Shown here in pieces: positions 4,275-31,488 of a stretch of 40,669 bases of DNA (position 1 is the first letter of the stretch; each line of letters begins with the position of its first letter). This DNA is from Elusimicrobiota bacterium (GTDB taxonomy: Bacteria > Elusimicrobiota > Elusimicrobia > UBA1565): contig JACRDU010000027.1 in assembly GCA_016218495.1 (NCBI GenBank), positions 1 through 40,669 on the forward strand. The letters are read 5' to 3'. Under the pieces are notes generated by a model. It was given only the letters and a program-made list of their open reading frames with translations. It had not been told where the DNA came from and did not search any database. Both the position numbers and the translations under genes were made by a program.

Positions 4275-7016
4275 CTACACCGTGGAGCGAGCCGCGGCGG
4301 CGGCCGACGCGGCCAGGCGCAGCAGCGCCGAGTCCGGGTCGCCCTTGAGGCGGATGTAGGCCGCGCGCCGGCCCGCGCCGCACAGGGCGCGGAAGTCGCC
4401 CAGCGCCTGCGCCCCGCAGAGCTGGCCGAAGCTCAGCCCCGCCCCCGGGATGTCTGCGTCCGGCCCGCTATCGCGGGCCAGCACCAGGAACAGCCCGGTG
4501 GCCGGCCCGCCCTTGTGGAGCTGGCCGGTGGAGTGCAGGTAGCGCGGCCCGTAGCCGCCCTGCACCGACATCCCGGCGGGCTCGGCGATGGCGCGCCGCA
4601 GCGCCGCCAGCTGGTCGGCGTGGCGGCCGTCGGAGGGCAGGTAGGCCAGCACGGCGCCGTAGTCCCCGGGGCGCGCCAGGGCCAGGAAGCGCCCCAGCGC
4701 CTCTTCGGGCGAGGCCGCCCCCGCGGCCGCCTCGGCCGCGGCGGGCGAGAAGCCCACGCTCCAGGACTCGTCTTCGGCCGCCGGAGCGGGCAGGGTCAGC
4801 GCGCCCTTCTCCTTGAGCTCGGCCAGGGCGGCCTGGGTCATCTCCTTGGCGGCCTGCACGTCGGGCTGGTCGAACGGGTCGACGCCCAGCTCGCGGCCCA
4901 GCACGGCGGTGGCGAACTCCCAGCGGAAGAACTCGGCGCCCAGCGCCTCGGGGGAGTCGAGCTCGAAGCGCAGCAGCGGCCGTCCGGCGGCCTCGAAGGC
5001 CCCGGCCTGCGCGGCGGCGGGACCCACGTCGCCGGTCCGGGAGACGAGGATGAAGAGCTTGTCGTCGGCGTAGCGGCCGCCCTCGCGCACCGGCTCGGCG
5101 GCCACGGGCACCACGCCCTTGCCCTCCTTCCCGACGCTTTCGGCGATGAGCTGCTCCAGCCACAGCCCGAAGCTGTCGAGCCTGGGCTCGGACAGGACGA
5201 CGAGCTTGTCGCGCCCGGCCCGGGCGTGCTCGGCCAAAGCGCGGCCAAGGGCCAGCCCCGGGTTCTCCGGACCGTCCGTGCGGCAGGCCTCGGCCATCGC
5301 CGCGGCGCGCTTGAGGAGCGCGCGCGCGTCCCAGCCGCACAGCGCGGCGGGTACGAGCCCGAACAGCGACAGGGCGGAGAAGCGCCCGCCCACGTCGGGC
5401 GGGTTGAGGAAGACCTTGCGGAAGCCCTTCTCCTTGGCCAGGGCCGCCAGCGGCGAGCCGGGGTCGGTGACGGCGCAGAAGCGGCTGCCGGCGTCGCCGC
5501 GCTCGGCGGCCCGGGCGTAGAAGTAGTCCATCAGCCGCGCCGGCTCCACCGTCGAGCCCGACTTGCTCGAGACGATGTAGAGCGTCCTATCCGGCGGGGC
5601 GGCCTGTTCGCAGGCCTTCACCGCCGAGGGTTCGGTAGAGTCGAGCACATGCAGGCGGGGGGGTCCGGCCGCCGGGTCGCCGACGGTGCGCAGCACCTCG
5701 CAGGCCAGGCTCGAGCCGCCCATGCCGAGCACGACGACGTGCTCGAAGCCGGCCGCGCGGACCTCTTCGGCGAAGGCCTCGACCGCCCCCAGGCGCTCGG
5801 GCATCGACGCCGGCAGGTCCAGCCAGCCCAGCGAGTTCCCGATGATGGCGCGGTGCTCGGGCGCGTCCTTCCAAAGCGCCGCGTCGCGGGCCCAGATGCG
5901 GGCGGCGACGGCGTCGGCGGGCGGGACGGCCAGCATCGCCTCGGCCTTCTTGGCCAGGTGGCCGAGCAGGCCGGCGAAGGCGTCGGCGAAGGACTTCACC
6001 CCATCGGCCTCCAGCTTGTCGGTCACCGCGGACAGGTCGACGCCGCGCCGGGCCAGCTCCTCGAGCGTGCGCCGGGCGTCCTCGAGCGCCGCGTCGACGG
6101 TGCGCGCGACGGCGCCGTGGTCGCGGAAGGCGTCCCAGGTGGCCGGCGGGATGGTGTTGACGGTGTCGGGCCCGATGAGCGTTTCGACGTAGACCACGTC
6201 GCGGTAGTCGGGGTTCTTGGTGCTCGTCGAGGCCCACAGGGGGCGCTGCAGGCGCCCGCCCTTGGCCGCCAGGGCCGCGAAGCGCTCGCCGCCGAAGACC
6301 TGCCGGAACAGCTTGTAGGCGGTCTTGGCGTTGGCGATGGCGGCCTGGCCGCGCAGCGGGGAGTCGGGCGGCAGCAGGGCGTCGACGGCGGAGTCGATGC
6401 GGCTGATGAAGAAGCTGGCCACCGAGGCCACCTGGGGCAGGGGCTCGCCCGCCGCGGCGCGGCGCTCGAGGCCGGCCAGATAGGCGTTCATCACCGACAT
6501 GTAGCGTTCCAGCGAGAAGATGAGGGTGACGTTGACCGGGATGCCGGCGGCCACCGTCTCCGCGATGGCGTCCAGGCCTTCCTTGGTGGCCGGGATCTTG
6601 ATCATCACGTTCGGCCGACCCACCTCGGCGAACAGGCGCTTGGCCTCGGCTGCGGTGCCGGCCGCGTCGTAGGCCAGGGTCGGGGAGACCTCGAGGCTGA
6701 CGAAGCCGTCGGCGCCCTGCGAGGCGTCGAAGACTGGGCGCAGCACGTCGGCCGCCTCGCGGATGTCGGGGACGGCCAGGCGTTCGAAGAGCTCCTTGGG
6801 GTCGCGCACGCCGGCGGCCAGGGCCTCGCGCAGGGCCGAGTCGTAGGCCGAGCCCTTGGTCATGGCTTTCTCGAAGATAGACGGGTTCGAGGTGACGCCC
6901 TTGAGGCCGTCCTCCTCCACCAGCCGGGCCAGCTCGCCGGAGCGCAGCATGTCGCGGCTGATCATGTCGTACCACGGGCTCTGGCCGGACTCGGAAAGGC
7001 TCTTGAGGGGGTTCAT
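4275..7016 (-). CDS. tal-pgi: Fused transaldolase / glucose-6-phosphate isomerase
   Basis: 913 residues joining two sugar-phosphate enzymes. Residues 1 to about 365 are a transaldolase: TSNPSIF at 42-48 and the Schiff-base lysine K140 in VMIKIPAT. Residues about 375-913 are a glucose-6-phosphate isomerase: GMGGSS (431-436), the sugar-phosphate loop SKSGST (484-489) and GGRFS (543-547). The fusion links the non-oxidative pentose-phosphate pathway to glycolysis through fructose-6-phosphate and is known as a bifunctional Tal/Pgi family. The ATG overlaps the folE stop by four bases (ATGA), indicating translational coupling. Both halves look intact. Confidence 0.95.
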   Translation of the reverse strand: MNPLKSLSESGQSPWYDMISRDMLRSGELARLVEEDGLKGVTSNPSIFEKAMTKGSAYDSALREALAAGVRDPKELFERLAVPDIREAADVLRPVFDASQGADGFVSLEVSPTLAYDAAGTAAEAKRLFAEVGRPNVMIKIPATKEGLDAIAETVAAGIPVNVTLIFSLERYMSVMNAYLAGLERRAAAGEPLPQVASVASFFISRIDSAVDALLPPDSPLRGQAAIANAKTAYKLFRQVFGGERFAALAAKGGRLQRPLWASTSTKNPDYRDVVYVETLIGPDTVNTIPPATWDAFRDHGAVARTVDAALEDARRTLEELARRGVDLSAVTDKLEADGVKSFADAFAGLLGHLAKKAEAMLAVPPADAVAARIWARDAALWKDAPEHRAIIGNSLGWLDLPASMPERLGAVEAFAEEVRAAGFEHVVVLGMGGSSLACEVLRTVGDPAAGPPRLHVLDSTEPSAVKACEQAAPPDRTLYIVSSKSGSTVEPARLMDYFYARAAERGDAGSRFCAVTDPGSPLAALAKEKGFRKVFLNPPDVGGRFSALSLFGLVPAALCGWDARALLKRAAAMAEACRTDGPENPGLALGRALAEHARAGRDKLVVLSEPRLDSFGLWLEQLIAESVGKEGKGVVPVAAEPVREGGRYADDKLFILVSRTGDVGPAAAQAGAFEAAGRPLLRFELDSPEALGAEFFRWEFATAVLGRELGVDPFDQPDVQAAKEMTQAALAELKEKGALTLPAPAAEDESWSVGFSPAAAEAAAGAASPEEALGRFLALARPGDYGAVLAYLPSDGRHADQLAALRRAIAEPAGMSVQGGYGPRYLHSTGQLHKGGPATGLFLVLARDSGPDADIPGAGLSFGQLCGAQALGDFRALCGAGRRAAYIRLKGDPDSALLRLAASAAAAARSTV

Positions 7017-10894: not shown

Positions 10895-11608
10895 TCAGGG
10901 CGCCGGGACCAGGGCGTCGTCGGGCGAGACGGGGCCGAGCAGGCCGGGCATCAGGCCGAAGCGGAAGTCCGGGCCGCCCCCCGAGGAGAGCCAGGCCCGG
11001 AACGCCTCGCCGCGCATCGCGCGCCCCGGCATGGCGCCGTCGAGGGCGACCACGACGGCCGCGCGCGCGCAGCCCTCGTCGGCCATCGTGCGCTTGAGCT
11101 GCTCGTCCTTCTCGCCGCGGCAGTGCACGAGGTAGTCGTGCAGGGTGGGGTAGGGCAGGGGGGCGCCGTCCGCCCCGCGCCGGAAGGAGCCTTCCGGCAG
11201 CAGGGTCCGGCTGGCGCAGCGCGCGTCGACGGCCCAGCGCTCGCCGTCGAGCTCGGCGGCCAGGTCGGCGCGGCGCCGGGTGGGGTCGGACTCCAGCGGC
11301 GAGATCTTCGCGAACCCCAGCGCGCTCAAGAAGCAGGCCGCCCGCAGCTCGGCCAGCGCGGAGTCCACGCGGTGCCCGCGCAGGTCGTCCGCGCCGAGGT
11401 CCGTGCGGCGCAGGAGCTCGTCGGGAGGAAGGCCGGTCGCGGAAGCCGCGCCGGCGAGGAGGGCCTTGATCCGTGCGACCGTGTCGTCGGGCTGCGTCTC
11501 GAGGGCTGAGAGGGCCCGGCCCGAGAGCCCGGCGGCCGCGCAGGCGAGGCAGTGCTCGACGAGGAGCGCCGGCAGTCCGGAGGAGCGCAGCGCGTCCAGG
11601 CGGCTCAG
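10895..11608 (-). CDS. Unrecognised protein, possible degenerate PD-(D/E)XK-like fold
   Basis: About 237 residues when started at the CTG at 11608, which overlaps the PorV-gene stop as CTGA. No ATG, GTG or TTG is available near the junction in this frame. The first 95 residues look helical and include paired cysteines (HCLACAAAG). Then a helix (LAELRAACFLSALGF), a strand with an acidic residue (ADLAAELDG), a strand ending DARC (RWAVDARCAS) and another strand (AAVVVALDG) follow in the order of restriction-endonuclease-like folds, where D...ExK would be expected; here the last part is D-A-R. The fold guess is inference from pattern only. Third gene of the surface-protein/PorV operon; a terminator follows at once. 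Confidence 0.5.
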   Translation of the reverse strand: MSRLDALRSSGLPALLVEHCLACAAAGLSGRALSALETQPDDTVARIKALLAGAASATGLPPDELLRRTDLGADDLRGHRVDSALAELRAACFLSALGFAKISPLESDPTRRRADLAAELDGERWAVDARCASRTLLPEGSFRRGADGAPLPYPTLHDYLVHCRGEKDEQLKRTMADEGCARAAVVVALDGAMPGRAMRGEAFRAWLSSGGGPDFRFGLMPGLLGPVSPDDALVPAP

Positions 11609-12582
11609 AAGCTCAACCCCACCGAGAACCGGTGGGTGTGGCCGAGCGCGCCGAAGGGCACCCAGCCGTAGTCGACCGACCAGCCCTGGATCACGACGCC
11701 CAGCCCCGCCGACAGCGACGAGACGCCGTCGAGCTCGTCGGAAGAGATGCGGCCGTCGTAGCCGAAGCGCCCGCTGAAGGAGAGCTCCTTGCCCGCGGGC
11801 AGCGTCAGCTCGGTGCCGAAGGCCGGGTACCAGTCGTTGTCTCGCGGGAAGGCCAGGTCGAGGCTGACTACCCACTCCGGCAGCAGTCGCAGCGCCTGGC
11901 CGAAGCGCACGTCGGTGGGCAGCGGGTCGCGCTGCTCGTGGAAGCGCAGCTCGCCGCCGAGGTTGCGCGCCGCCAGCGCGGCCGTGTAGGGCTTGCCGAG
12001 GACCTCCAGGCGCAGGCGCGCCCCGACGTCGGCCGAGCCGGTCTTCGCCGAGGCCTGGATGCGCGAGTCGACGTACTTGAGGGAGATCCCCAGGTCAAAG
12101 AGGTCGGTCAGGGTCCCCCCCCAGCCGGCCATCAGGGCGATGTCGCGGGGGGTGAACTCCCCCCCGGTCGGCGCGGCGGTGTTGTCGACCTCCGTCATGC
12201 TCCCGGCGTTGAGGTAGAGCACGCCCAGCGCCAACGTGCCCAGCCCGCTCGGGCGCAGGAAGCGCCGCTTGGGCTTGATGGCCGGCTGGACCGGATGGGC
12301 GTAGGCCGCGAAGCTGACCATCACGTCCTGATAGAGGAGCCCCTGGGTGGCCGTGCCCTGGCGGCGCTTGAGCTGGGAGAGGCCGGCGGGGTTGTAGTAG
12401 AGCGCCGCGCCGTCTTCGGCGGCGGCCGTCATCGCCTGCCCCATCGCCGCGCCCCGGGCGTCGCCGCCGAGCTTCAGGAACTCCCCGGCCGAGGTCCCGG
12501 CGAAGTCGGAGTTGAACGCGGCCCTGGCGCTCCCGCCGAGGAGGGCCGAGGCGGCCAAGGCGGCGAGCAGGGCCTTCCTCAT
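11605..12582 (-). CDS. PorV/UPF0164-family outer-membrane beta-barrel
   Basis: 325 residues with a signal peptide (MRKALLAALAASALLGGSARA). The mature start AGEFLKLGGDARGAAMGQA followed by ALYYNPAGL is the signature of the PorV/PorQ-UPF0164 family, related to FadL-type barrels. The rest consists of alternating strands and ends in a typical barrel C-terminus, HRFSVGLSF. In Bacteroidetes PorV shuttles C-terminal-domain cargo of the type IX secretion system at the outer membrane. Here its ATG overlaps the stop of the large modular surface protein (ATGA), suggesting a dedicated partner. No other type IX component lies in the window. Confidence 0.82.
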   Translation of the reverse strand: MRKALLAALAASALLGGSARAAFNSDFAGTSAGEFLKLGGDARGAAMGQAMTAAAEDGAALYYNPAGLSQLKRRQGTATQGLLYQDVMVSFAAYAHPVQPAIKPKRRFLRPSGLGTLALGVLYLNAGSMTEVDNTAAPTGGEFTPRDIALMAGWGGTLTDLFDLGISLKYVDSRIQASAKTGSADVGARLRLEVLGKPYTAALAARNLGGELRFHEQRDPLPTDVRFGQALRLLPEWVVSLDLAFPRDNDWYPAFGTELTLPAGKELSFSGRFGYDGRISSDELDGVSSLSAGLGVVIQGWSVDYGWVPFGALGHTHRFSVGLSF

Positions 12583-15500
12583 CTCTCCACCGCGAACTTG
12601 ATGATGGTGTCGGAGCCGTCGTCGCCGCGCACATAGGCGAAGTAGACCCCGCTGGCGATGCGGCGCCCGGAGGCGTTGGTCCCGTCCCAGATGACGGTGC
12701 CGACGTTGACCGCGTTGAAGAGGAGCTCGCGGACCAGCTCGCCGGAGAGCGTGAAGATGCGGATGTTCCCGGAGGAGGGCAGGTTGTCGATGGCCAGCCC
12801 GGTGCGGCCGGCGAAGGAGACGGAGTCGAACTTCCCGCCGCTGCCCGGCTTCCACGGGCGGGGATAGAGGCGGACCTGGTCGGTGTTGGGCTTGATCCCC
12901 GTCGGCCCGAACAGCGCGAAGATCGAAAAGTGGGAGGTCTGGCCCAGCACCCTCTTGTTGGCGAGGTCGACGGTGGAGGGCAGGGCCTCCCAGCGCGTCA
13001 CCGCGGTGTTCAGCGTGTACATGCGCAGGTTCTCGGCGGGGATGGCGGGCGAGGTGCCGTCCACCAGCCCGTTGCCGTCCGTGTCGGGGTACGGGATGCC
13101 GAGGGTGACCATGGAGCCGAGGTTCGAGGTGCGCGGGACGCCGCCGACGTTGGCGACGACCTCGATGAGGCTGCTCGGGACCAGGGTCTGGCCGGTGGGC
13201 GGAGAGGAGAGGCCGTCGGTCAGGGTCCGAACCGAGACGGTGATCGGCACGGTCAGCGGGGAGGACGAGATGAGCAGGACGGCCGGGCTGCCGAAGGCGT
13301 TGGGCGGCACGGTGATGCGGACCTCCTGGTTCGGGGAGGCCGGGGCGACCACGGAGGGCTGGGAGGACTGCGTGTCGGCGGCCACCTGGGCCGCGTTCAG
13401 GGCCGAGGTCAGCACATGGACCTCGTCGATGGTGCCGTTGAAGGCGCGGTCGAACGAGGAGGCGGCCGTGCGGCGGTTCCCGATGGACAAGGACTGCGTG
13501 GAGGCCAGGCGGCTGGCGGGGGCCGTCATCGCGGAGGACAGGGTCCCGTCCACGTAGATGGAGAGGCTGGGGCTGCCGCCGGACAGGTAGACGCCCACCA
13601 CATGGGTCCAGGCGCCCAGGCGCAGGGTCTGGGTCGAGAAGGCGGTGAAGAGGCTGCCGGAGGCGTTGCGGACCCCGAAGCGCCAGCGGCTGGTCGAGGA
13701 GACGTCGAGCATGAACGTCTCCCACGCCCCCGTTCCCTTGACGACGATGCCGGCGTCCTGGACCTGGGCCAGGGAGCCGGGAAGGACCCAGGCCTCCACC
13801 GTCAAATCGCCGGTCGTGGCCAGCGACGCCGAATGGGCGGCCTGCACGACGCCGCCGGTCAGGCCCGCGAAGCGCAGAGCGTTGCCGAGCCCGCTCATGC
13901 CCGTCGTGAAGACGGGCGTCGAGGCGTTGATGACCCCGCTGAGCGTGCCGTGGTTCCCATAAGAGGTGGAATCGGCGGCGCTGGTCCCCGAGCTTTCGTC
14001 GAAGTGCCAGGCTCCGACCGTCGCCGCGGGGAAGTCGTAGGGGGACGCCGGCGAGTTGTTGGACGAGATCGCGCCGAAGCGGTCGGTGACGAAGGAGACG
14101 GCGGCGTCGAACCCGCTCGATGAGCCGCTGAAGCCCGACGCGCGGACCCGGGCATAGTAGGTGGAGGCCGGCAGCAGGCCCGTGACGTTGGTGTCCGTCC
14201 CGACCACGCTGAGCACGGCGAGGAGGGTGCCGGTGAAGCCGTTCTCCGAAGAGACCTGGACCTGGAAGGAGGTCCCCCCGGGGTTCCCGTTGGCGTTCCA
14301 GGTCAAGCGGGCCGTGGCCGTGGAGACGCTGGCCACCGCCGTGCCGGTCGGAGGGTTCGGGAGGGTGAAGGCCGTGGCCGTGTCGCCGAAGGAGCCGGAC
14401 CCCGACGGGTTGTTGGCCCTGAGCGCCGCCCCATAGGAGGCGTTCGGGGACAGGTTGTTGACGGTGAAGGAGAGCGCCCCGGTCACCGCCAGGTCCGTGC
14501 CGGTGGAGCTGCGCAGGGTGTAGCTGGTGGCCGTGGGGACGGCGGTCCACGACCAGGTGATGGCGGAGGCCGTCACCCCGTTGCCGGAGAGCGAGCCGGG
14601 CGCGGCGGGCAGGGTGGCGAAGGTGGCCGAGGCGAACCCGGAGTAGACGGTGCCCGGGGTGTCGCTGTCGCTGGAGCGGCCGTTGAGGGCCCGCACCCTG
14701 ATGTAATAGGTCGTCTGCGGCGAGAGGCCGACCAGGCCGGTCGTGACGCCGGTGAGGTCGTTGGAGATGGGCACGCGGGTGGAGAGGACGGTGGCGAAGT
14801 TGTTGGTCGAGAGGCTCACCTCGAAGCGCGTGTAGGCCTGGTTGGTGGAGGACCAGGAGAAGACCGCGCTCCCGGTGGAGATGGAGCCTATCGTCGGTCC
14901 CGTGGGGTCGGCGGCCTGGGTGTAGGCGCTGGTCGGGGAGCTCAGCGGGCTCTCTCCGAAGTCGTCGATGGCGCTGACGCGCAGGCCCTGCAGGGTGTTG
15001 GCTCCCAGCAGGGTCTGAGTGAACGCGGTGGTGGTCTGCGGCCCGGCCAGCAGCGCCAGGTCGGAGGCCCGGTAGACCTTGAACGCCCCGGCCGTCGTGC
15101 CGGCGGCGCGCTTGCACAGGCGCGTGCCGCGCGTCCAGCTCCAGTCGAGCTGGGAGACCGAGGGGGCGGAGCCCGCCAGCAGGAGCGGGGTGTCGGGGAC
15201 GGATTCCACGACGGTGATGCCGTTCGAGACCCGGCGCGTGTTCCCGACCTTGTCTTGGAAGGAGAAGGTGACGGTGTTCGCGGAGCCGCTCCGGAGCGCG
15301 AGGCTGGAGATGTCTATCAGGGCGGTGGTCGTCCCGCCGTCGGCGTAGGCGGCCGGGGAATAGTGGGTGGCGGGGACGAGGTCGGTGCGCGTGGGCAGCA
15401 CCGAGGCCGTGCTGGTGGATTTGAGCGAGAAGACGCCCGAGTAGAAGTCGGCCTCGATGTCGTTGTCGCTGAGGGCCTGGTTGAACACCCGGACCTCGTC

Positions 15501-16370
15501 GATGCGGCCCGCGAAGGCGTTCAGCGCCGAGGGCCGCCGGCCGACGAAGAGGTTGTAGTTCGTCAGCATGGGCGGCGGGCCGGTGATCGTGAAGGAGGCT
15601 ATGGAGACATGGTTGTGGTACAGCTTGGCCACCGAGCCGTTGAAGGTCAGGGTGACGAGCTGCCACTCGTTCGCCTTGACGAAGCCCCCCGAGCTGATGA
15701 TGACGTGGTTCGCCCCCGTCGTGTCGACCAGGTTGGCGAAGAGGTCCCCCGCGTTGCTGACCGAATGCCAGAACACGACGCCGGGGCTGGTGCCGTTGTT
15801 CCATTCCAGGATGGGGGCCAGGGAGGTGTTGGATGGATAGATCCAGGCCTGTAGGGTCATCTGGTCGGTGGTGCTGTTGAGCGTCGGGCTGGCGTTGATC
15901 TTGATGAAGTCGTTGGAGCCGTTGCCGTCGAAGACGTAGCAGTTGTCCCCGCCCAGCCCTGTGTGGCCGTTGGGGGACGCGCAGGCCGCCAGGTTCGCGC
16001 TGGTCAGGCCGGGGTTGATGGACCCCGGGGCGGTGCTGACGATGGTCTGGTCGACCCCGGCCCCCAGGCCCTCGTCCATGTGCAGGTGGACGACCAGGCT
16101 CGTCGGCCCCGCGTTTCCGCCCACGTGGGCCGTGCGGCCGACGCGCAGGCCCATGCCGGCGTTGAGGGCGGCCGTGGTGTCCTGGTCCCGGACCCGGACC
16201 CGGAAGGAGACGACCCCGGTGGAGGTGAACGACGCGTTCTCGAGGTAGTTCCCTTCGCAGTCGGTGAAGGAGAAGCTGCTGATGGTCGGTGCGACGGTGT
16301 CTGCCGCCGCCGCGGGGCGCGCGGCGGCCAGCAAGGCCAGCAGGAGGGGCAGGATGCGCGCAAAGCGCAT
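12579..16370 (-). CDS. Large modular surface protein: LamG, Fn3 and FlgD-like C-terminal domains
   Basis: 1263 residues from the ATG at 16370, with a signal peptide (MRFARILPLLLALLAAARPA). In order: a LamG/concanavalin-like domain (about 80-290, with VVHLHMDEG and MTLQAWIYPS), several fibronectin-III repeats (about 370-770, with recurring LSPQTTYYIRVRA-type ends), a second LamG domain (about 780-1000, with GAWHFDESSGT and LTVEAWVLPGS), a beta-rich region with YPDTDGNGLVDG, and a C-terminal FlgD/type-IX-like Ig domain containing IRIFTLSGELVREL, IWDGTNASGRRIASGVYF. It is probably exported to the surface for adhesion or glycan binding. An alternative TTG/ATG 13 codons upstream is less likely. 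First gene of a three-gene operon. Confidence 0.8.
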   Translation of the reverse strand: MRFARILPLLLALLAAARPAAAADTVAPTISSFSFTDCEGNYLENASFTSTGVVSFRVRVRDQDTTAALNAGMGLRVGRTAHVGGNAGPTSLVVHLHMDEGLGAGVDQTIVSTAPGSINPGLTSANLAACASPNGHTGLGGDNCYVFDGNGSNDFIKINASPTLNSTTDQMTLQAWIYPSNTSLAPILEWNNGTSPGVVFWHSVSNAGDLFANLVDTTGANHVIISSGGFVKANEWQLVTLTFNGSVAKLYHNHVSIASFTITGPPPMLTNYNLFVGRRPSALNAFAGRIDEVRVFNQALSDNDIEADFYSGVFSLKSTSTASVLPTRTDLVPATHYSPAAYADGGTTTALIDISSLALRSGSANTVTFSFQDKVGNTRRVSNGITVVESVPDTPLLLAGSAPSVSQLDWSWTRGTRLCKRAAGTTAGAFKVYRASDLALLAGPQTTTAFTQTLLGANTLQGLRVSAIDDFGESPLSSPTSAYTQAADPTGPTIGSISTGSAVFSWSSTNQAYTRFEVSLSTNNFATVLSTRVPISNDLTGVTTGLVGLSPQTTYYIRVRALNGRSSDSDTPGTVYSGFASATFATLPAAPGSLSGNGVTASAITWSWTAVPTATSYTLRSSTGTDLAVTGALSFTVNNLSPNASYGAALRANNPSGSGSFGDTATAFTLPNPPTGTAVASVSTATARLTWNANGNPGGTSFQVQVSSENGFTGTLLAVLSVVGTDTNVTGLLPASTYYARVRASGFSGSSSGFDAAVSFVTDRFGAISSNNSPASPYDFPAATVGAWHFDESSGTSAADSTSYGNHGTLSGVINASTPVFTTGMSGLGNALRFAGLTGGVVQAAHSASLATTGDLTVEAWVLPGSLAQVQDAGIVVKGTGAWETFMLDVSSTSRWRFGVRNASGSLFTAFSTQTLRLGAWTHVVGVYLSGGSPSLSIYVDGTLSSAMTAPASRLASTQSLSIGNRRTAASSFDRAFNGTIDEVHVLTSALNAAQVAADTQSSQPSVVAPASPNQEVRITVPPNAFGSPAVLLISSSPLTVPITVSVRTLTDGLSSPPTGQTLVPSSLIEVVANVGGVPRTSNLGSMVTLGIPYPDTDGNGLVDGTSPAIPAENLRMYTLNTAVTRWEALPSTVDLANKRVLGQTSHFSIFALFGPTGIKPNTDQVRLYPRPWKPGSGGKFDSVSFAGRTGLAIDNLPSSGNIRIFTLSGELVRELLFNAVNVGTVIWDGTNASGRRIASGVYFAYVRGDDGSDTIIKFAVER

Positions 16371-17934: not shown

Positions 17935-19523
17935 GCGGCGCGCTTGGCGAGCTCGCCCTCGCGCAGGACCCGCTTGAGGACCTTCTGGAGCGCGTTCTTG
18001 GGCAGCTCCTTGGAGATCTCGATGTCCCGGGGGCGCTTGTAGGCGTCGAGCTTCTCGCGGCAGAAGCGGTGGAGCTCGGCCGTGTCGGCGGAGGCTCCCT
18101 GGCGCAGGACGATGAAGGCCTTGATGCGCTCGTCGTTGTCGGCCTCGGGGATGCCCACGACGGCCGCCTCGGCGACGTCGGGGTGCGTGGCGATGACCTG
18201 CTCGACCTGCGCCGAGAAGACCTTCAGGCCCTTCACGATGATCATGTCCTTCTTGCGGTCGCGGATGTGGACGAACCCGTCCGAGTCGACGATGCCCACG
18301 TCCCCGGTCTTGAACCAGCCCTCAGGCGAGACGGCCGCGCGGGTGGCCTCGGGGTCGTGCAGGTAGCCCTTCATCACGTTGGGGCCCTTGATGCAGATCT
18401 CCCCCTCCTCTCCTTGGGTCAGCGCGCGGCCGGCGTCGTCGACGATGCTCACGCTGACGTCCTTGATGGGCAGCCCCACCGAACCGGCCTTCTGCCGGCC
18501 CAGCGGGTTGATGGTCGCCACCGGCGAGGTCTCGGTCAGGCCGTAGCCCTCCACGATGCGCAGGCCGAAGGCGGCCTCGAACTCGCCGAGGGTCTGCGGG
18601 GACAGCGGCGCCGACCCGGAGACGGCGATGCGCACCTTGCGGAAGAACCACCACTTGAGGACCCAGGCCTTCATTCCGGTCGCCTGCTTGGAGAGCAGGG
18701 AATAGATCTGGGGCACGGCGGCGAAGACCGTCACGCCGTGGCGCGCCATCTGCTGGAGCCAGGGCTTGGGCGGCGTGATCGACGGTATGACCACGTTCTT
18801 CCCGCCAAGGCAGATCGGGATCAGGACGTTGGCCGTCCAGGCGAAGGTGTGGAACATCGGCAGCAGGGTCATCGACACGTCGTGCTCGTCGAGGCCCATG
18901 GCCTCGATGGAGGACAGGCAGTTGGAGGCCAGGTTGGCGTGCGTCAGCATGACGCCCTTGGGCTTGCCGGTCGTCCCCGAGGTGTAGAGGACGGCGGCCG
19001 TGTCGCCGGCGGCGACCTCGACGGTCTCCTCGTAGGGTGGGCAGTCCTCGATGAAGTCCCAGAAGTTCTCGGTGGCCCCGGGGTTGGGCTCGCCGCGGCG
19101 GTCGCCGGTCCGGCGCCGCTCGTCGGTGGTCCACACGTGGGTCACGCTCGGGGCCGACTTGCGCGCGTCCAGCACGCTCTTCACGAACTCGCGCTGGGTG
19201 ACGATCCCCTTGGCCCCGCAGTGGTTGAGCATGTACGCCAGCTCCTCGGGCTTCGAGATCAGGTAGTTGATGGGGACGGCCACCCCCCCCATCCGGCACA
19301 GGCCCAGGTAGGTGACGACGAAGGCCGGGTCGTTGCGGTGGATGATGGCGACGTGGTCGCCCTTGGCGATGCCGGTCTTGCGCAGGGCGGCCGCGGCGCG
19401 CAGCACCAGATGGCGCAGGGCTTCATAGCTGATGGACTCCTCGGCGCCGTCCTTGGCGGTCGACAGGGCGGTCGCCGTCGGGCGGCGCGCGGCGGAGCGG
19501 TCGAGCAGGTCGTTGAGGTTCAT
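17931..19523 (-). CDS. Long-chain acyl-CoA ligase (AMP-forming)
   Basis: 530 residues of the ANL (acyl-CoA synthetase) superfamily. The AMP-binding loop YTSGTTGKPKG is at 180-190; VEGYGLTETSP, GWFKTGDVG and DRKKDMIIVKG, with the C-terminal lysine segment YKRPRDIE...ALQKVLKR, follow in order. It activates a fatty or other carboxylic acid with ATP and CoA; the exact substrate cannot be read from the sequence. A charged insert near 133-148 (TDERRRTGDRRGEPNP) looks like a surface loop. The ATG overlaps the upstream permease stop (ATGA) and the end overlaps cca (GTGA). Confidence 0.9.
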   Translation of the reverse strand: MNLNDLLDRSAARRPTATALSTAKDGAEESISYEALRHLVLRAAAALRKTGIAKGDHVAIIHRNDPAFVVTYLGLCRMGGVAVPINYLISKPEELAYMLNHCGAKGIVTQREFVKSVLDARKSAPSVTHVWTTDERRRTGDRRGEPNPGATENFWDFIEDCPPYEETVEVAAGDTAAVLYTSGTTGKPKGVMLTHANLASNCLSSIEAMGLDEHDVSMTLLPMFHTFAWTANVLIPICLGGKNVVIPSITPPKPWLQQMARHGVTVFAAVPQIYSLLSKQATGMKAWVLKWWFFRKVRIAVSGSAPLSPQTLGEFEAAFGLRIVEGYGLTETSPVATINPLGRQKAGSVGLPIKDVSVSIVDDAGRALTQGEEGEICIKGPNVMKGYLHDPEATRAAVSPEGWFKTGDVGIVDSDGFVHIRDRKKDMIIVKGLKVFSAQVEQVIATHPDVAEAAVVGIPEADNDERIKAFIVLRQGASADTAELHRFCREKLDAYKRPRDIEISKELPKNALQKVLKRVLREGELAKRAA

Positions 19524-20404
19524 TTCTGCCTCGGGTCGAGGATGTCCCGGAAGGCGTCTCCGAGCAGGTTCCAGCCGAGAACGAACAGGAAGATGGCCGT
19601 CCCGGGGATGACCACGGTGTGCCAGTAGGCCAGCGGGCTGCCGGACGCGCCCAGGATCCAGTTGCGCGACATGCTGATCAGCTGCCCCCAGTCGGCGTAG
19701 CCGACGGGGGCGCCCAGGCCCAGGAAGGAGAGCGCGGCCGCCGAGAGGACGACCGCGCCCGTGTTGAGCGACGCTACCACGAGCACCGGGTAGATCGAGT
19801 TCGGGATGACGTGCCCGAAGAGGATGCGCATGTCGCCGGCGCCCAGCGCGCGCGCGGCCAGGACGAACTCGCGCTCCTTGACGGTGAGCACGTCGCCGCG
19901 CACCAGCCGGGCGTAGGAGGGCCAGGACACCGCGGCCAGCGCCAGCACCACGTTCTCGAGGCCGGGCCCGCGGACCGTGACGATGACGACGGCGAGGATG
20001 ATGCTCGGCAGCGCCATCACCACGTCGGTCAGGCGCATCAGGAGTTCGTCCACCCAGCCGCCGTAGAAGCCCGCCAGGCCGCCGACCAGGACCCCGACGG
20101 CGAGCGAGACGAAGACGACCTTGACGCCGATGTCGAAGGCCGTGCGCGAGCCCCAGACGATGCCGTAGTAGAGGTCGTACTGCTGCTCGGTCGTGCCGAA
20201 CCAATGGCGCGCGCTGGGCCGGAGCGGGTCGGGGCTGTAGCCGTCCTGCGGGATGAGGTAGGCGTCCCGGGCCTGGGGCGGCGGCGGGGCCAGCACGGGG
20301 GCGGACGCCGCGACGAGGGCGAAGAACGAGAGCAGGCCCAGGCCCGCCAAAGACAGCGGCTTGCGGCGCAGCGCCATCCAGGCGTCGGCCAGGAACGCGC
20401 TCAT
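19520..20404 (-). CDS. dppC: Peptide ABC transporter permease, DppC type (system 1)
   Basis: 294 residues, an inner-membrane permease of the binding-protein-dependent peptide/nickel transporter family. There is an N-terminal membrane segment (LAGLGLLSFFALVAASAPVL), the periplasmic stretch typical of DppC (HWFGTTEQQYDLYYGIVWG), and an EAA-type loop for the ATPase (EREFVLAARALGAGDMRI). It overlaps dppB upstream (ATGA) and the acyl-CoA ligase downstream (ATGA). No ATPase gene follows within this transcript. Confidence 0.9.
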   Translation of the reverse strand: MSAFLADAWMALRRKPLSLAGLGLLSFFALVAASAPVLAPPPPQARDAYLIPQDGYSPDPLRPSARHWFGTTEQQYDLYYGIVWGSRTAFDIGVKVVFVSLAVGVLVGGLAGFYGGWVDELLMRLTDVVMALPSIILAVVIVTVRGPGLENVVLALAAVSWPSYARLVRGDVLTVKEREFVLAARALGAGDMRILFGHVIPNSIYPVLVVASLNTGAVVLSAAALSFLGLGAPVGYADWGQLISMSRNWILGASGSPLAYWHTVVIPGTAIFLFVLGWNLLGDAFRDILDPRQK

Positions 20405-21426
20405 CTGTACCGGATCCTCGGGTCGACCACGGAGTAGAGGATGTCCGCGGCCAGGTTGCCGAGCACGAACAGGGTCGAGGTGAGCAGCGCCACCCCCATC
20501 ACGGCCGGCACGTCGAGCTGTAGCGCGGCCTGGGCCACCCAGCGGCCTATGCCGGGATAGGCGAAGACGGTCTCGGTTATCAGCACGCCGCCGAGGAGCT
20601 GGACGAAGAGGATCGAGGCGATGGTGATCACGGGGATCCAGGCGTTGCGCCGGGCGTGGCCGTTGACGACGGCGCTCTCCGGCAGGCCCTTGGCCCGCGC
20701 GGTGCGGACGTAGTCCTTCCCCAGCTCCTCGAGCATCGACGAGCGGGTGACCCGGACCAAGAGGGCCATCGTGACGTAGGTCAGCGTGGCGGCGGGCAGC
20801 ACGAGGTGCGCGAGGGCGTCGACGAACACCCGGGGCTCCCCGTTGAGCAGCGAGTCCAGCAGGATGAGCCCGGTGTAGGAGGCGAACCCGCCGCCGTTCA
20901 CGACGAGGTCCGAGGACAGGGAGATGCGCCCGGGCGGGAAGAGCTGGAACATGCCGTAGAAGACCATCAGCAGGGTCAGCCCGAGCGCGAAGGAGGGCAG
21001 CGAATAGCCGGTGATGGAGATGAAGCGGGAGAGCTGGTCGATGAAGCGGTCCTTGTGGACCGCCGAGAGCGTCCCCAGCCAGATCCCCAGAAGCATGATG
21101 GGGACGAAGGACAGCACGGAGAGCTCGACGGTCGCGGGGAAGAACGCGCGCACGGCCTGGGTCACGGGCATCTTGGCCGTCTCCGAGTAGCCGAGGTCGC
21201 CCCGCGCGACGCGCCCGAGCCAGCGCACGTACTGCTTGTGGAAAGGGTCGCGCAGGCCGTAGGACGAGATGACGGACTCCAGCGCCGCGAGCTGGCGCGG
21301 GTCCTTGATGTAGAGCGAGGCGCGCATCTCCGGGGAGAGCGTCTGGAACAGCCCGAAGAGCAGCATCGTCACGCCGGCCAGGACCAGCGGCAGCATGGCG
21401 AGGCGCTTGAGGATGAAGCGGGTCAT
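20401..21426 (-). CDS. dppB: Peptide ABC transporter permease, DppB type (system 1)
   Basis: 341 residues with six membrane segments. The N-terminus MTRFILKRLAMLPLVLAGVT and the EAA-type loop KDYVRTARAKGLPESAVV are standard for DppB/OppB. It forms the import channel with the DppC subunit encoded next to it. The gene begins ten bases after the binding-protein stop and overlaps dppC by four bases. The stretch GVLITETVFAYPGIGRW is highly characteristic of the family. Confidence 0.92.
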   Translation of the reverse strand: MTRFILKRLAMLPLVLAGVTMLLFGLFQTLSPEMRASLYIKDPRQLAALESVISSYGLRDPFHKQYVRWLGRVARGDLGYSETAKMPVTQAVRAFFPATVELSVLSFVPIMLLGIWLGTLSAVHKDRFIDQLSRFISITGYSLPSFALGLTLLMVFYGMFQLFPPGRISLSSDLVVNGGGFASYTGLILLDSLLNGEPRVFVDALAHLVLPAATLTYVTMALLVRVTRSSMLEELGKDYVRTARAKGLPESAVVNGHARRNAWIPVITIASILFVQLLGGVLITETVFAYPGIGRWVAQAALQLDVPAVMGVALLTSTLFVLGNLAADILYSVVDPRIRYR

Positions 21427-21436
21427 CGTCGCGGCG

Positions 21437-23248
21437 CTATTCCTTCCAGAGGCTGTAGAACGGGGAAAGGTAGGGCGAGTCGGGCCAGACGGGGTTGTAC
21501 TGGAAGCCCTTCAGCCAGCTGCGCTGGGTCCGGTAGCTGACGCTGTCGAGCACGAAGAGCGTATGGGCGTCCTCGTGGGCGATGGCCTGCAGGCGGTGGT
21601 AGAGCTTGGCCCGCTTGCCGGGGTCCGTCTCCCCCATGGCCTGCGTGACCAGGCGGTCCGCCTCGGCGTTCTTGTAGCGCTGCAGGCGCGGGTAGTTCCC
21701 CTGCGAGTGCATGAACGGGTGCGCGAAGTTATGCGCGTCCGGGTAGTCCGGCGCCCAGCCGAGGACGAACATCGGCAGCTTGGAGGCGTTGGACTGGTCG
21801 AGGTAGGTCGACCACTGGATGGCGCGGGTGTCTATCTTGAACTTGGGGTTTATCGACTCCACCGAACGCTTGAGCATGTTCGCGATGACCTCGCGGGGCG
21901 CGTTGCCGGAGTTGAAGGACAGCGTGAACTTGAAGCCCTTCTCCCAGAGCTTCCCGCCGAAGGCCTTCTTGAAATGCGCCTCGGCCTTCTTGAGGTCGTA
22001 GGCGTAGACGGGCTGGTCCGGGTTGTGCCCGAGCAGGCCCTTCGGGATGAAGCCCGTGGCGCGCGAGCCCTTGCCGCGGTTGACGTCCTTGATGAAGCCG
22101 TCCGCGTCGAAGGCGTGGGCGAAGGCCAGGCGCACGTCCTTGTCGGCGAAGAAGTCCCCCGGGATGCCTTCGCCGTCGAGCTTGCCGGAGCCGATGTTGG
22201 GGTTGCCCTGGGTCTCGATCTTGAAGACGAAGAAGACCGTCGGGTTCATGTCGATGCGCGGCAGGTCGTCGATCAGCTCCACCCCGTCGATCGACTCGAG
22301 CAGGGGCTTGGACAGGCGGTCGGCGTATATGGAATCGGCGTCCCCGGCGGCCAGCATCAGCTTGCGGGTCTGGAACTCGTCGATGCCCCGGATGACCACC
22401 GTCTTGAGCCTGGCCGGCCCGCGCCAATAGCCCTCGAAGCGCGAGAGCACGATCTCCTTGCCCTTGGAGTCCCAGCGCTCGAGCTTGAACGGCCCCGTCC
22501 CGTCGGGCCGGTCGTGCAGCGCCTCGGAGGTCTTCTGGGGGTTGTTGTGCTTCTCCCAGTCCTCCTTGCTGCCGTCCCAGCAGGCGGCCGCCTTGGCACT
22601 GTCCTTGGCGACGACCAGGCCCCAGGAGGCGAGCACGGTGAGGATGGGCGCGAAGGGCTTGTGGAGCTTGAGCTGGACCGAATCGCCCTGGACCGTCACG
22701 GCGGCGGCGACCTTGTCGTAGACGCCGGCGATGACCTTGCCCTTCTCGTCCCGGGTCGAGGACAGCCCCGTCACCGGTTCGAGCAGCAAGGACGACGGGC
22801 CGCCCGCCCGGTCGTAGAGCATGAAGCGCATCAGGGAATAGCGCACGTCCTCGGGGGTCAGGGTCGCTCCATGGTGGAACTTCACCCCTTTGCGGATGGG
22901 GAAGGTATAGGTGCGCCCGTCGGCGGAGACGAGGCCGTTCGCCCGGCTGGGGACCTGCTGGGCGATGACGGGCTCGAGCTCCGAGGTGCTGGAGCCCTTG
23001 TACGTGACCAGCGGCTCGTAGACGTTGAGGAGGATGGAGTGGCTGGCGGAGTCGTAGGCCCAGGCCGGGTCCATGGAATCGATGTCCTGGATGGTCGCAT
23101 GGATGTAGGTGTCTTTGTTGGGGACCGCGGCGGCGCCCGTCGGGGCGGGGGCGGGACCCGGCTCGGCATCCCGCTTCCCGCAGGCGCTGAGGGCGGCGAC
23201 GAGGAAGACGGCCAAAATCGCGAGGGCGGCATAGCCTTTCCGGACCAT
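21437..23248 (-). CDS. dppA: Peptide-binding lipoprotein, SBP family 5 (system 1)
   Basis: 603 residues. A lipoprotein signal peptide with lipobox LSAC (lipidated C23) is followed by a family 5 solute-binding fold: IHATIQDIDSMDPAWAYD, YTFPIRKGVKFHHGATLTPEDV and SFNSGNAPREVIANMLK. It captures oligopeptides or related ligands in the periplasm for the DppBC channel. A clear TAAGGAG ribosome-binding site precedes the ATG at 23248, and TATCAT (23280-23275) may be a -10 box, though no good -35 is seen. It is first gene of the operon dppA-dppB-dppC-ligase-cca. Confidence 0.9.
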   Translation of the reverse strand: MVRKGYAALAILAVFLVAALSACGKRDAEPGPAPAPTGAAAVPNKDTYIHATIQDIDSMDPAWAYDSASHSILLNVYEPLVTYKGSSTSELEPVIAQQVPSRANGLVSADGRTYTFPIRKGVKFHHGATLTPEDVRYSLMRFMLYDRAGGPSSLLLEPVTGLSSTRDEKGKVIAGVYDKVAAAVTVQGDSVQLKLHKPFAPILTVLASWGLVVAKDSAKAAACWDGSKEDWEKHNNPQKTSEALHDRPDGTGPFKLERWDSKGKEIVLSRFEGYWRGPARLKTVVIRGIDEFQTRKLMLAAGDADSIYADRLSKPLLESIDGVELIDDLPRIDMNPTVFFVFKIETQGNPNIGSGKLDGEGIPGDFFADKDVRLAFAHAFDADGFIKDVNRGKGSRATGFIPKGLLGHNPDQPVYAYDLKKAEAHFKKAFGGKLWEKGFKFTLSFNSGNAPREVIANMLKRSVESINPKFKIDTRAIQWSTYLDQSNASKLPMFVLGWAPDYPDAHNFAHPFMHSQGNYPRLQRYKNAEADRLVTQAMGETDPGKRAKLYHRLQAIAHEDAHTLFVLDSVSYRTQRSWLKGFQYNPVWPDSPYLSPFYSLWKE

Positions 23249-24984: not shown

Positions 24985-25783
24985 GCGCCCCGGATTCTCT
25001 GCCAACTGCCCACGTGGGCAGTTGGGCGATGGCGGTCTTCGAGCAGTGCCATGGTTTGAGCGATGAAGAGCTGGCCGTGCGCCTCAAAAAACTGTGTGGT
25101 GTCCGGCAGAAGGTCTCGGGAGTGCTGGTGGCCTACCTGTCTGAATTCGCGGGGCGGCGGCTGTATGCCCCGGCGGGTTTCAGTTCGCTCTTCGTCTATT
25201 GCGTCAAAGAGCTGGGGCTCTCCGAATCCTCCGCCTACAAGCTCATCCTAGCGGCCCGCGCCGCCAGCCGTTTCCCAGGCATCATCGCTCTATTGGCGGA
25301 GGGACGCCTCAACCTGAGCGCAATCAGAATTCTGGCCCCCCACCTGTCTCCGGACAACTGGGAGAAGCTCCTCACCCAGGCCGAAGGGATGAACGCGCGG
25401 CAGCTCGAAGTCCTGGCGGTGACGCTGTCCCCCAAGCCCGACCGCCGGGACGTCATCCGGGCTCTCCCCCAGCCTCCGGCCGACCTCCCTCTGACACAGG
25501 GCCCCCCGCCCTGTCCGCCGGAGGTCCATTCCGCCCCGCCTCTCCCGCTCCGGCCCCGGCTCCCCGCGCGCGCATCGAGCCGTTGAGCCCGGAGCGCGTC
25601 CTCTTCGGCTTCACCGGCAGCGAGCGCCTGCGGGAGAAGATTCAGCGCATCAGGCAGATCCCCTGGCACACGAATCCGGCGGGGCGGCTCGAGCTGCTGG
25701 TGGAGGCGCTGGCCGACTTCTATCTGGCGCGCAGGGACCCGGGAAGGAAGAAGCGGCAGCGGCCGCTCGGGCGCGGCCGCTAA
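24981..25783 (+). pseudogene. Frameshifted, truncated HNH-family paralogue
   Basis: The first frame (24981-25586, 201 residues) repeats the helical N-terminal region of the upstream gene: YLSEFAGRRLYAPAGFSSLF matches QLGEFDARGLPEAAGYPTLY. Homology then continues in another frame from about 25570 to 25783, where ERVLFGFTGSERLREKIQRI matches ERVHFGFTGSVELRRKIERA. The frame change lies in a proline-rich linker, roughly 25500-25580. The copy ends before any HNH domain, so catalysis is lost. Its start overlaps the upstream stop (ATGA). The first half is less GC-rich than the neighbour. The stop overlaps the stop of the convergent dppC gene. A short non-catalytic N-terminal protein could still be made. 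Confidence 0.75.
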
Positions 25784-26682
25784 CCCACCTTCTTCGGGTC
25801 GAAGGCGTCCTGCAGGGCGTCGGTGAGCATGTTGAAGGCCATCACAAGCACGAAGAGCAGGATGGTGGCCCCGGTGACCTCCCACCATTTGCCGGCCAAG
25901 AGGTCCAGGCGGGCGTTCGAGATCATCACGCCCCAGCTGGGCTCGCCGGCTATCCCTAGGCCCAGGAAGGACAGGATGACCTCGTTCTTGACCGCGGCGA
26001 TGAAGTCCAGCGACAGGAAGACGAAGATCAGGTGGCTCAGGTTCGGCACGATGTCGCGGAAGATGATGCTCCACTTGGACGCCCCGTAGGACTCCGAGGC
26101 CAGCACGAACTCCAGCTCCTTGAGGCGCCGGACCTCGGCGCGCACATTGAAGTAGACCCCCACCCAGAAGGTGGCCGCCAGCGCCACCACCACGCCGGTG
26201 AACCCCCGTCCGAACGCGTAAGAGATGCTGACGATCCAGAGGATGAACGGCACGGAGTTGATGGCGGTGTAGAGCCACAGCAGGGCGTCGTCGACCAGCC
26301 CCCCGAAGTACCCCGAGATGCAGCCCAGCACCACGCCGACGGCCACCGACAGGACGGCGACGATGACGCCGATGGCGAAGGCCTGCTTGATGGAGTAGAC
26401 GAGCTTCACGGCCACGTCGCGGCCCTGGATGTCGGTGCCGAACAGGGAGCGCGCCGCAGCCTTCGTCCCGTCGGCAAGGGTGCGCTGGTAGGCCGCTCCG
26501 GGGCGGACGAACTGCGGGCCCACCGGAGTGGTGGCCTGGGCCAAGGTGCAGAACAGCCCCAGCTTGACCCCGAGGGCGACCAGGCCGAAGAAGCCCACCA
26601 CGGCCAGCCCGGCCATCCCGAAGCGGTCGCGCCGGAGCTTGCGCAGTGATTTCCGGAAGAGCGATTCCCCGTGGGCGTTCAT
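25780..26682 (-). CDS. dppC: Peptide ABC transporter permease, DppC type (system 2)
   Basis: 300 residues. N-terminal cytoplasmic part and membrane segment (MAGLAVVGFFGLVALGVKL), the family stretch SLFGTDIQGRDVAVKLVYS, and an EAA-type loop LEFVLASESYGASKWSII. Inner-membrane half of the second peptide transporter channel. It overlaps its dppB partner upstream (ATGA) and ends tail-to-tail with the decayed HNH copy, sharing overlapping stop codons and leaving no room for a terminator. Confidence 0.9.
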   Translation of the reverse strand: MNAHGESLFRKSLRKLRRDRFGMAGLAVVGFFGLVALGVKLGLFCTLAQATTPVGPQFVRPGAAYQRTLADGTKAAARSLFGTDIQGRDVAVKLVYSIKQAFAIGVIVAVLSVAVGVVLGCISGYFGGLVDDALLWLYTAINSVPFILWIVSISYAFGRGFTGVVVALAATFWVGVYFNVRAEVRRLKELEFVLASESYGASKWSIIFRDIVPNLSHLIFVFLSLDFIAAVKNEVILSFLGLGIAGEPSWGVMISNARLDLLAGKWWEVTGATILLFVLVMAFNMLTDALQDAFDPKKVG

Positions 26683-27629
26683 GAGAGCTTGATGCGCGGG
26701 TCGACCAGGCTACTCAGGACGTCGGCCACGGTGTTCGCCACCACCACCAAGAGCGCGATCAGCATCGTGAAGGTCTTGATGACCGGGTAGTCGGCGGACT
26801 CGATGGCGTGCAGCAGCTTGTAGCCCAGCCCGGGGATGACGAAGAAGGACTCCAAGAGGAAAGAGCCCGCTATCATGAACGGGATCACCACCACCACGCG
26901 CGAGATGATGGGGATGGCGATGTTCTTGAGCACGTGCTTGAAGAGAATGGTCCGCGTGCCCGCCCCGTAGGCCTTGGCCGTCCGGATGTACTCGCGGTTC
27001 ATCTCCTCGACGGCCACCGCGCGGAAGAAGCGCGTGTCGTAGCCCAGCGCCACGAAGCAGGAGATGAGGTTCGGCAGCAGGATGTAGGGCAGGCAGGCGA
27101 AGAAGCCGCGCTCGTAGCCGGTGATGGGGAAGGAGGCCAGGCCGTGCTGGTTCGGGACGAAGGCCAGGAAGTACTGCGCGAAGATCATCACCGCCACGTA
27201 GGAGATGGCCATCCCGACCGTGGCCCCCGCCACGATGAGCTTGTCGAGCAGGGTCCCCCGCCAGTAGGCGCAGACGAGCCCCAGGACGATGGAGATGCCG
27301 GAATAGAGCGCCAGCGCCGGCAACGTGATGGCCACCGACGGCCCGATGCCCTCGAGGAACATCCGGGAGATCGGCTCCTTGGCCGACATCGAGAAGCCCA
27401 GGTCAAAGGTGAGCAGCTGCTTCATCCCCTCCAGGTACTGCACCGGCAGCGGCTTGTCGAGCCCCAGCTCGCGGCGCAGCGACGCCACCTCGGCCGGCGT
27501 GGCGTTCTTGCCCAGGTACAGATAGACCGGGTCGTCCCCGATGACGTTGAAGATGCAGAAGACGAGGATGGAGACCCCGAGCAAGGTCGGGACCATCGCC
27601 GCCGTCCGCCTGAGGATGTAGGTCAGCAT
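26679..27629 (-). CDS. dppB: Peptide ABC transporter permease, DppB type (system 2)
   Basis: 316 residues with six membrane segments. It begins MLTYILRRTAAMVPTLLGVS, the standard DppB start, and has the EAA-type loop REYIRTAKAYGAGTRTILF and SFLLESFFVIPGLGYKLL. It forms the channel with the adjacent DppC. It lies four bases after the binding-protein stop and overlaps dppC. Sequence is clearly different from the system 1 DppB, so the two transporters are not a recent duplication. Confidence 0.92.
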   Translation of the reverse strand: MLTYILRRTAAMVPTLLGVSILVFCIFNVIGDDPVYLYLGKNATPAEVASLRRELGLDKPLPVQYLEGMKQLLTFDLGFSMSAKEPISRMFLEGIGPSVAITLPALALYSGISIVLGLVCAYWRGTLLDKLIVAGATVGMAISYVAVMIFAQYFLAFVPNQHGLASFPITGYERGFFACLPYILLPNLISCFVALGYDTRFFRAVAVEEMNREYIRTAKAYGAGTRTILFKHVLKNIAIPIISRVVVVIPFMIAGSFLLESFFVIPGLGYKLLHAIESADYPVIKTFTMLIALLVVVANTVADVLSSLVDPRIKLS

Positions 27630-27633
27630 GCGC

Positions 27634-29439: not shown

Positions 29440-29448
29440 GTGCCTCTC

Positions 29449-30437
<989 letters not shown>

Positions 30438-30441
<4 letters not shown>

Positions 30442-31457: not shown

Positions 31458-31488
31458 CGCCGCGGATTATAGGAAATCCGGGCGCGAC

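What the first reader, a model, noticed from the sequence alone, without database searches (positions are those of the whole stretch)
10895..16370. Operon of surface protein, PorV-like shuttle and an unknown third protein
A LamG/Fn3 protein with a FlgD/type-IX-like C-terminal domain is coupled by ATGA to a PorV-family barrel, which is itself coupled by CTGA to an unrecognised gene. In type IX systems PorV receives cargo through such C-terminal domains, so this may be a dedicated cargo-shuttle pair, with the third protein an added component not described for that system.
Basis: partly seen in the sequence, partly recalled or inferred. Interest (0 to 1): 0.6.

Follow-up and report, generated by a model that had tools for sequence, protein, structure and literature searches.

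The report
Cargo and private T9SS-like carrier pair
This operon pairs a large surface protein with its own outer-membrane carrier, one of about 19 such pairs in this Elusimicrobiota genome; its phylum also encodes a divergent relative of the type IX secretion channel, a system thought confined to Bacteroidota and their kin, while the operon's third gene is an unrelated nuclease-fold protein found only in this genus.

Summary
In detail: three co-directional genes (16370-10895, minus strand) joined by ATGA and CTGA. Gene 1 is a LamG/Fn3 protein with a type IX-like C-terminal domain (CTD), gene 2 a PorV-family barrel, gene 3 unrecognised by Pfam, NCBIfam and PADLOC. The genome is Elusimicrobiota. 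The pair is one of about 19 CTD-cargo + barrel pairs in this genome, and 34 of 40 PorV genes sampled from 40 relatives have a CTD protein directly upstream. The phylum encodes a single-copy SprA-like channel (130/150 genomes, syntenic, full length; its profile hits only SprA in the PDB, E 6e-22). It is missing from this MAG together with its conserved neighbours, probably an assembly gap. I found no sign of the GldL/GldM motor (inconclusive) and only CTD tails, no PorU sortase domain (one exception in a contaminated MAG). The third protein is not a secretion component on present evidence: conserved in all three genomes of the genus, absent from 94 other relatives, beside no other PorV here, predicted PD-(D/E)XK nuclease-like fold with Arg where the catalytic Lys should be. 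Novelty: a SprA/PorV/CTD module outside the FCB group, one private carrier per cargo.

The parts
12579..16370 (-). Surface/cargo gene, 1263 aa: signal peptide, two LamG domains, three Fn3 domains, C-terminal type IX-like sorting domain
   Evidence: conserved in G001 and G002 at 61-62% identity
12582..12857 (-). C-terminal domain (last 92 aa), type IX/PorU-PorZ/FlgD-like Ig fold; Lys near the end (K in IIKFAVER)
13380..13853 (-). Second LamG (Laminin_G_3) domain, residues 840-997
12579..12582 (-). ATGA stop/start overlap between cargo and barrel genes
   Evidence: the same 4-nt overlap at most other pairs of this genome
11605..12582 (-). PorV-family outer-membrane barrel, 325 aa with signal peptide
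   Evidence: NF033709 140.5 bits; AlphaFold2 pLDDT 85.7; top Foldseek match is translocon PorV 8gl6_F, E 1.1e-12
11605..11608 (-). CTGA stop/start overlap between barrel gene and third gene (CTG start; TTG and ATG in congeners)
10895..11608 (-). Third gene, 237 aa, cytosolic-looking; PD-(D/E)XK nuclease-like fold with E87, D115, D128-x-R130

Best explanation
The first two genes are one of about 19 two-gene modules in this genome, each made of a secreted protein with a type IX-like C-terminal domain and its own FadL/PorV-type barrel. Proposed working: the cargo enters the periplasm by Sec; its folded CTD is captured by the loops of its own barrel docked at the side opening of an SprA-like channel; the barrel-cargo complex leaves the channel sideways and the barrel then keeps the uncleaved cargo on the cell surface. 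Shown here: gene order, the pairing rule, co-divergence, and sequence/fold homology of CTD, barrel and the phylum's SprA-like channel to type IX parts. Inferred: binding, export, lateral exit and permanent anchoring. The third gene is a genus-specific passenger of the operon with a restriction-endonuclease-like fold, probably a cytosolic nucleic-acid-binding or nuclease-like protein rather than a secretion component.
For: Pairing: 19 CTD proteins in this genome end directly before a barrel gene; 34 of 40 PorV genes from 40 relatives have a CTD protein directly upstream, and no CTD match occurs elsewhere in those loci or in six SprA loci. Co-divergence: Mantel r 0.42, p 2e-4 over 18 pairs. Barrel: profile A4 matches F. 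johnsoniae PorV at E 1.9e-37; the only other chain listed is a FadL homologue at E 0.013; the predicted fold is closest to translocon PorV. CTD: profile A2 ranks the PorU tail (1.5e-7) and PorZ tail (6.8e-7) above FlgD (1.2e-5), and also finds the NucA tail solved in the translocon (0.0023). A Lys/Arg is present in 16 of 17 CTDs six residues from the end, as in type A CTDs where a near-invariant Lys close to the C terminus contacts PorV (PMC10994853). Channel: SprA model hits in 89/97 class members in colinear blocks; A3 finds only SprA in the PDB, E 5.7e-22; 130/150 genomes of the phylum carry it, beside lptF/lptG and mostly comF. In one genus SprA and PorV are lost together (12/12 against 1/12, p 1e-5). 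Precedent: type B CTDs with cognate, adjacently encoded PorP/SprF carriers in Bacteroidota (PMC12618676, PMC9143113).
Against: No SprA gene is on the assembled contigs of this genome; its neighbours lptF, lptG and comF are missing too, which points to a gap but does not prove it. SprA-like proteins score under the curated cut-off. GldL and GldM were not detected (no positive control for either). PorU was found only through CTD tails. Six of 40 PorV genes lack an upstream CTD gene. The co-loss lies in reduced genomes, in which outer-membrane genes are lost generally (PMC11257099). No binding was tested or modelled.
Confidence: 0.75

Rival explanations
1. The barrels are not carriers but FadL-type transporters or anchors that hold surface proteins delivered by another route; the SprA-like protein serves something else, such as outer-membrane or lipopolysaccharide assembly, given its place beside lptF/lptG.
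For: FadL is the next fold match after PorV; sprA sits beside lptF/lptG in the genomes read; no motor or sortase was found.
Against: The barrel profile finds F. johnsoniae PorV at E 1.9e-37 and one FadL homologue only at 0.013; SprA, PorV and CTD homologues occur together in one phylum and are lost together in reduced genomes; the pairing rule.
Confidence: 0.15
2. The third protein is a real part of the module, for example a cytosolic factor acting on cargo mRNA or controlling expression of the operon.
For: The start/stop overlap with the barrel gene is kept in all three genomes although the start codon changes; the order is conserved and purifying selection is visible.
Against: Found in one genus only; no other pair in this genome has it; predicted nuclease-type fold.
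Confidence: 0.12
3. The third protein is an active PD-(D/E)XK nuclease of a defence or repair role that hitch-hikes in the operon.
For: Most top fold matches are nucleases of this superfamily: XisH, AF1548, PaqCI, HamA, Hjc.
Against: The catalytic Lys is Arg in all three orthologues; no PADLOC match; top Z is 8.6, only slightly above the usual background.
Confidence: 0.3

Closest known systems
Type IX secretion translocon (SprA-PorV-CTD) of Flavobacterium johnsoniae
   Same: Homologues of channel, carrier barrel and cargo CTD; conserved Lys near the CTD end
   Different: Phylum outside the FCB group; many private PorV-type carriers instead of one shared PorV; no motor or sortase detected; SprA-like protein about 1,800 aa against 2,403 in F. 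johnsoniae
Type B CTD + PorP/SprF cognate carrier pairs (SprB-SprF; Fjoh_3952-3951-3950)
   Same: Carrier gene directly downstream of its cargo gene, many cognate pairs per genome, sometimes a third gene
   Different: Here the carrier is PorV-type and the CTD type A/PorU-PorZ-like; the third gene of the window is not PorE-like. One pair of this genome (contig C48) does have a PorP/SprF-like barrel
NCBIfam NF033709 PorV/PorQ family
   Same: Barrel scores above the curated cut-off
   Different: The family model says nothing about pairing or function
PD-(D/E)XK nuclease superfamily (XisH, Hjc, HindIII)
   Same: Predicted fold and D...D-x-R arrangement of the third protein
   Different: Arg in place of the catalytic Lys; extra N-terminal helical part; no sequence-level match

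Membership tests
Type IX secretion system | SprA/Sov outer-membrane channel | tested here: met
   Met as a homologue in the phylum: 89/97 class and 130/150 phylum genomes, E to 7e-24 with TIGR04189 but under its 200-bit cut-off; only SprA matches in the PDB. Absent from this MAG's contigs, as are its neighbours
Type IX secretion system | PorV-type carrier | tested here: met
   140.5 bits against NF033709, E 1.9e-37 to FjPorV, fold; under the cut-off of the PorV equivalog model (53.5 of 250 bits)
Type IX secretion system | Cargo with a C-terminal sorting domain | tested here: met
   Best PDB matches are PorU and PorZ tails; another cargo of this genome (C155) passes the CHU_C and FlgD_ig cut-offs; the window's own tail is under the cut-offs
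Type IX secretion system | GldL/PorL and GldM/PorM motor | tested here: inconclusive
   GldL best E 0.0016 in 3/97 genomes; GldM none in 57; no positive control, and a short protein as diverged as SprA could be missed
Type IX secretion system | PorU sortase (found in Porphyromonas-type systems) | tested here: not met
   NF033707 matches almost only its CTD tail region; the one listed hit in its catalytic region is in G080, a MAG with 14% contamination
Type IX secretion system | GldK/PorK, GldN/PorN, PorT, PorW/SprE, PorE | not tested
Cognate CTD/carrier pairs | Carrier gene directly downstream of cargo gene, repeated in the genome | tested here: met
Cognate CTD/carrier pairs | Specific binding of cognate partners | not testable with these tools
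   no complex prediction offered; only indirect co-divergence
PD-(D/E)XK nuclease superfamily (third protein) | Core alpha-beta fold | tested here: met
   model pLDDT 82, pTM 0.84; fold matches
PD-(D/E)XK nuclease superfamily (third protein) | Catalytic (D/E)-x-K | tested here: not met
   D128-A-R130 invariant in all three orthologues

The most novel reading that the evidence does not exclude
Elusimicrobiota run a stripped-down type IX-like export system, without PorU-type sortase and perhaps without the GldLM motor, in which every surface protein brings its own PorV-type barrel that is both carrier and permanent anchor; this would place the SprA/PorV/CTD module outside the FCB group.
Probability: 0.45. 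Interest if true: 0.8.

Novelty: new variant of a known kind. Interest (0 to 1): 0.62.

Why it matters
[quoted passage not shown] A conserved SprA-like channel, around twenty PorV-type barrels per genome in many lineages and matching cargo tails in Elusimicrobiota would move the origin or spread of this system outside that group, and the many paralogous pairs in one genome are a natural set for learning how a carrier recognises its cargo. Loss of channel and barrels together in the reduced genomes would fit a surface role.

Tried and rejected
(1) 'No type IX system here', suggested by the SprA search of this genome alone, was overturned by the search of relatives. (2) PorU hits in 81/97 genomes were rejected as sortases: they cover only the CTD tail, bar one. 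(3) A plain FlgD/flagellar reading of the CTD was rejected: PorU and PorZ tails rank above FlgD. (4) The paper search with the truncated stem and whole-word matching is void and not used. (5) Pfam gave nothing for the SprA-like protein of G001, so Pfam alone would miss it. (6) A regular-expression count of CTDs (27/40) was replaced by a profile count (34/40). (7) The promoter and terminator scan found nothing useful.

Full report
What is in the window. On the minus strand, a tRNA nucleotidyltransferase/poly(A) polymerase-type gene (17934-16420) is followed after 49 bases by the surface gene (16370-12579), the PorV-family gene (12582-11605), the third gene (11608-10895) and, 44 bases on, an Mrp/ApbC gene (starting at 10850). 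The surface protein has two LamG and three Fn3 stretches and a C-terminal domain that matches FlgD_ig and the type IX tail model weakly and the PorZ tail at 5.7e-12. The barrel passes the PorV/PorQ family cut-off.

Where it comes from. The nearest named genome is 'Elusimicrobia bacterium NC_groundwater_827'; the window's MAG has 4.15 Mb in 165 contigs and is 95.4% complete. The order surface-PorV-third is conserved in the two other genomes of the genus.

The pair is one of many. This genome has 27 PorV-family matches. After gene calling around them and a profile of their upstream tails, 19 barrel genes follow directly on a CTD protein, most with a 4-base overlap. Barrels with readable upstream sequence but no CTD protein are those of contigs C30 and C110, plus a weak match on C155; several others are cut by contig ends. 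Cargo lengths run from under 200 to more than 5,000 aa and include a subtilase, Kelch repeats and Fn3 domains. In 40 relatives, one PorV gene each, 34 have a CTD protein directly upstream, and not one CTD match falls elsewhere in those loci or in six SprA loci. The sample took mostly the best-scoring PorV gene of each genome, so it is not random. CTD and barrel distances correlate over 18 pairs (Mantel r 0.42, p 2e-4), as expected if pairs are copied and diverge as units; correlation alone does not show binding.

The channel. The SprA model found nothing in this MAG but rang in 89 of 97 relatives with colinear blocks in reading frames mostly of 1,750-2,050 aa, under the curated cut-off, and in none of 14 control genomes in that run (an earlier run at a looser threshold rang once, in Thermus). 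Six full-length proteins aligned find only F. johnsoniae SprA in the PDB, in three colinear blocks, E 5.7e-22. In most of the seven genomes read, the gene lies beside lptF/lptG and a comF-like phosphoribosyltransferase gene (the families were checked by Pfam only in G001). Across the phylum 130 of 150 genomes carry it; the gaps fall almost wholly in one family with reduced genomes, where two genomes keep decayed pieces with in-frame stops. In that family's largest genus, PorV matches occur in 12 of 12 genomes with the channel and in 1 of 12 without (p 1e-5). Endosymbionts also lose other envelope genes (PMC11257099), so this supports but does not prove a functional link. In the window's own MAG the neighbours lptF, lptG and comF are missing as well, which makes an assembly gap likely.

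Comparison with the solved translocon. The barrel profile matches FjPorV at 1.9e-37; the AlphaFold2 model (pLDDT 85.7) is closest to translocon PorV, then FadL. The CTD profile matches PorU and PorZ tails first, then FlgD, then tails solved in the translocon. PorU and PorZ keep their tails after secretion (PMC11285876), which fits a system in which no PorU sortase is seen and the cargo stays on its carrier. In F. johnsoniae a near-invariant Lys close to the CTD end contacts PorV (PMC10994853); here Lys or Arg fills a position six residues from the end in 16 of 17 tails. Correspondence with that Lys was judged from its place near the end, not from a structural alignment. Cognate, adjacently encoded pairs are known for type B CTDs with PorP/SprF carriers, and one F. 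johnsoniae pair has a third, PorE-like gene (PMC12618676, PMC9143113). The variant here is a PorV-type carrier per cargo, in a phylum for which I found no report of a type IX system (open-access papers only).

The third protein. 237 aa, no obvious signal peptide, no family match, present in 3 of 97 relatives, all one genus, and in no other genus in a scan of about 85,000 species genomes, a scan that depends on short conserved stretches. Orthologues are 60-63% identical with dN/dS about 0.4-0.5. The model (pLDDT 82 for the best of five, the other four near 50; pTM 0.84) aligns mostly to PD-(D/E)XK fold proteins (top Z 8.6). Invariant E87, D115, D128 and R130 fit the motif except for Arg in the Lys place. 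Nothing ties it to secretion.

Conclusion. The pair is best read as a type IX-like cargo and private carrier. Full membership in the type IX system is not claimed: channel, carrier and signal are met as homologues, the motor is inconclusive and the PorU sortase was not found. The third gene is a genus-level addition of unproven function.

Noticed in passing
G000 contigs C122, C7, C109, C48 (L031:12046-13410, L043:2959-4488, L046:14324-15874, L050:6638-8659): Several PorV-type barrels carry C-terminal TPR repeats, a fusion not present in the window's barrel; TPR is also a part of PorE in Bacteroidota.
   Followed up: partly
L050:6638-8659 (G000 C48): One paired barrel is a PorP/SprF-type protein (PF11751, 47.6 bits, over the cut-off) with TPR repeats, preceded by two CTD genes in tandem, so the genome holds both carrier types.
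   Followed up: partly
G108:C1:953515-953796, G198:C13:21599-23773: Decayed SprA-like pieces with in-frame stops in reduced genomes of family f16 (probably Endomicrobiaceae), suggesting recent loss of the channel.
   Followed up: partly
G096:C1:112984-118098: Full-length SprA-like gene in a single-contig 1,643,562-base genome, probably Elusimicrobium minutum by its size (from memory), which would be a cultured test organism.
   Followed up: partly
G000 C127:8001-12197 and C35:4261-6039: CTD proteins without a PorV-family match directly behind them (orphan cargoes), like the orphan type B cargoes of F. johnsoniae.
   Followed up: no
window 19520-23248 and 25780-33419: Two clusters that read like oligopeptide-type ABC transporters on the minus strand.
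   Followed up: no
window 4275-7016: A 913-aa protein that starts like a transaldolase and is long enough to be a fusion; not searched.
   Followed up: no
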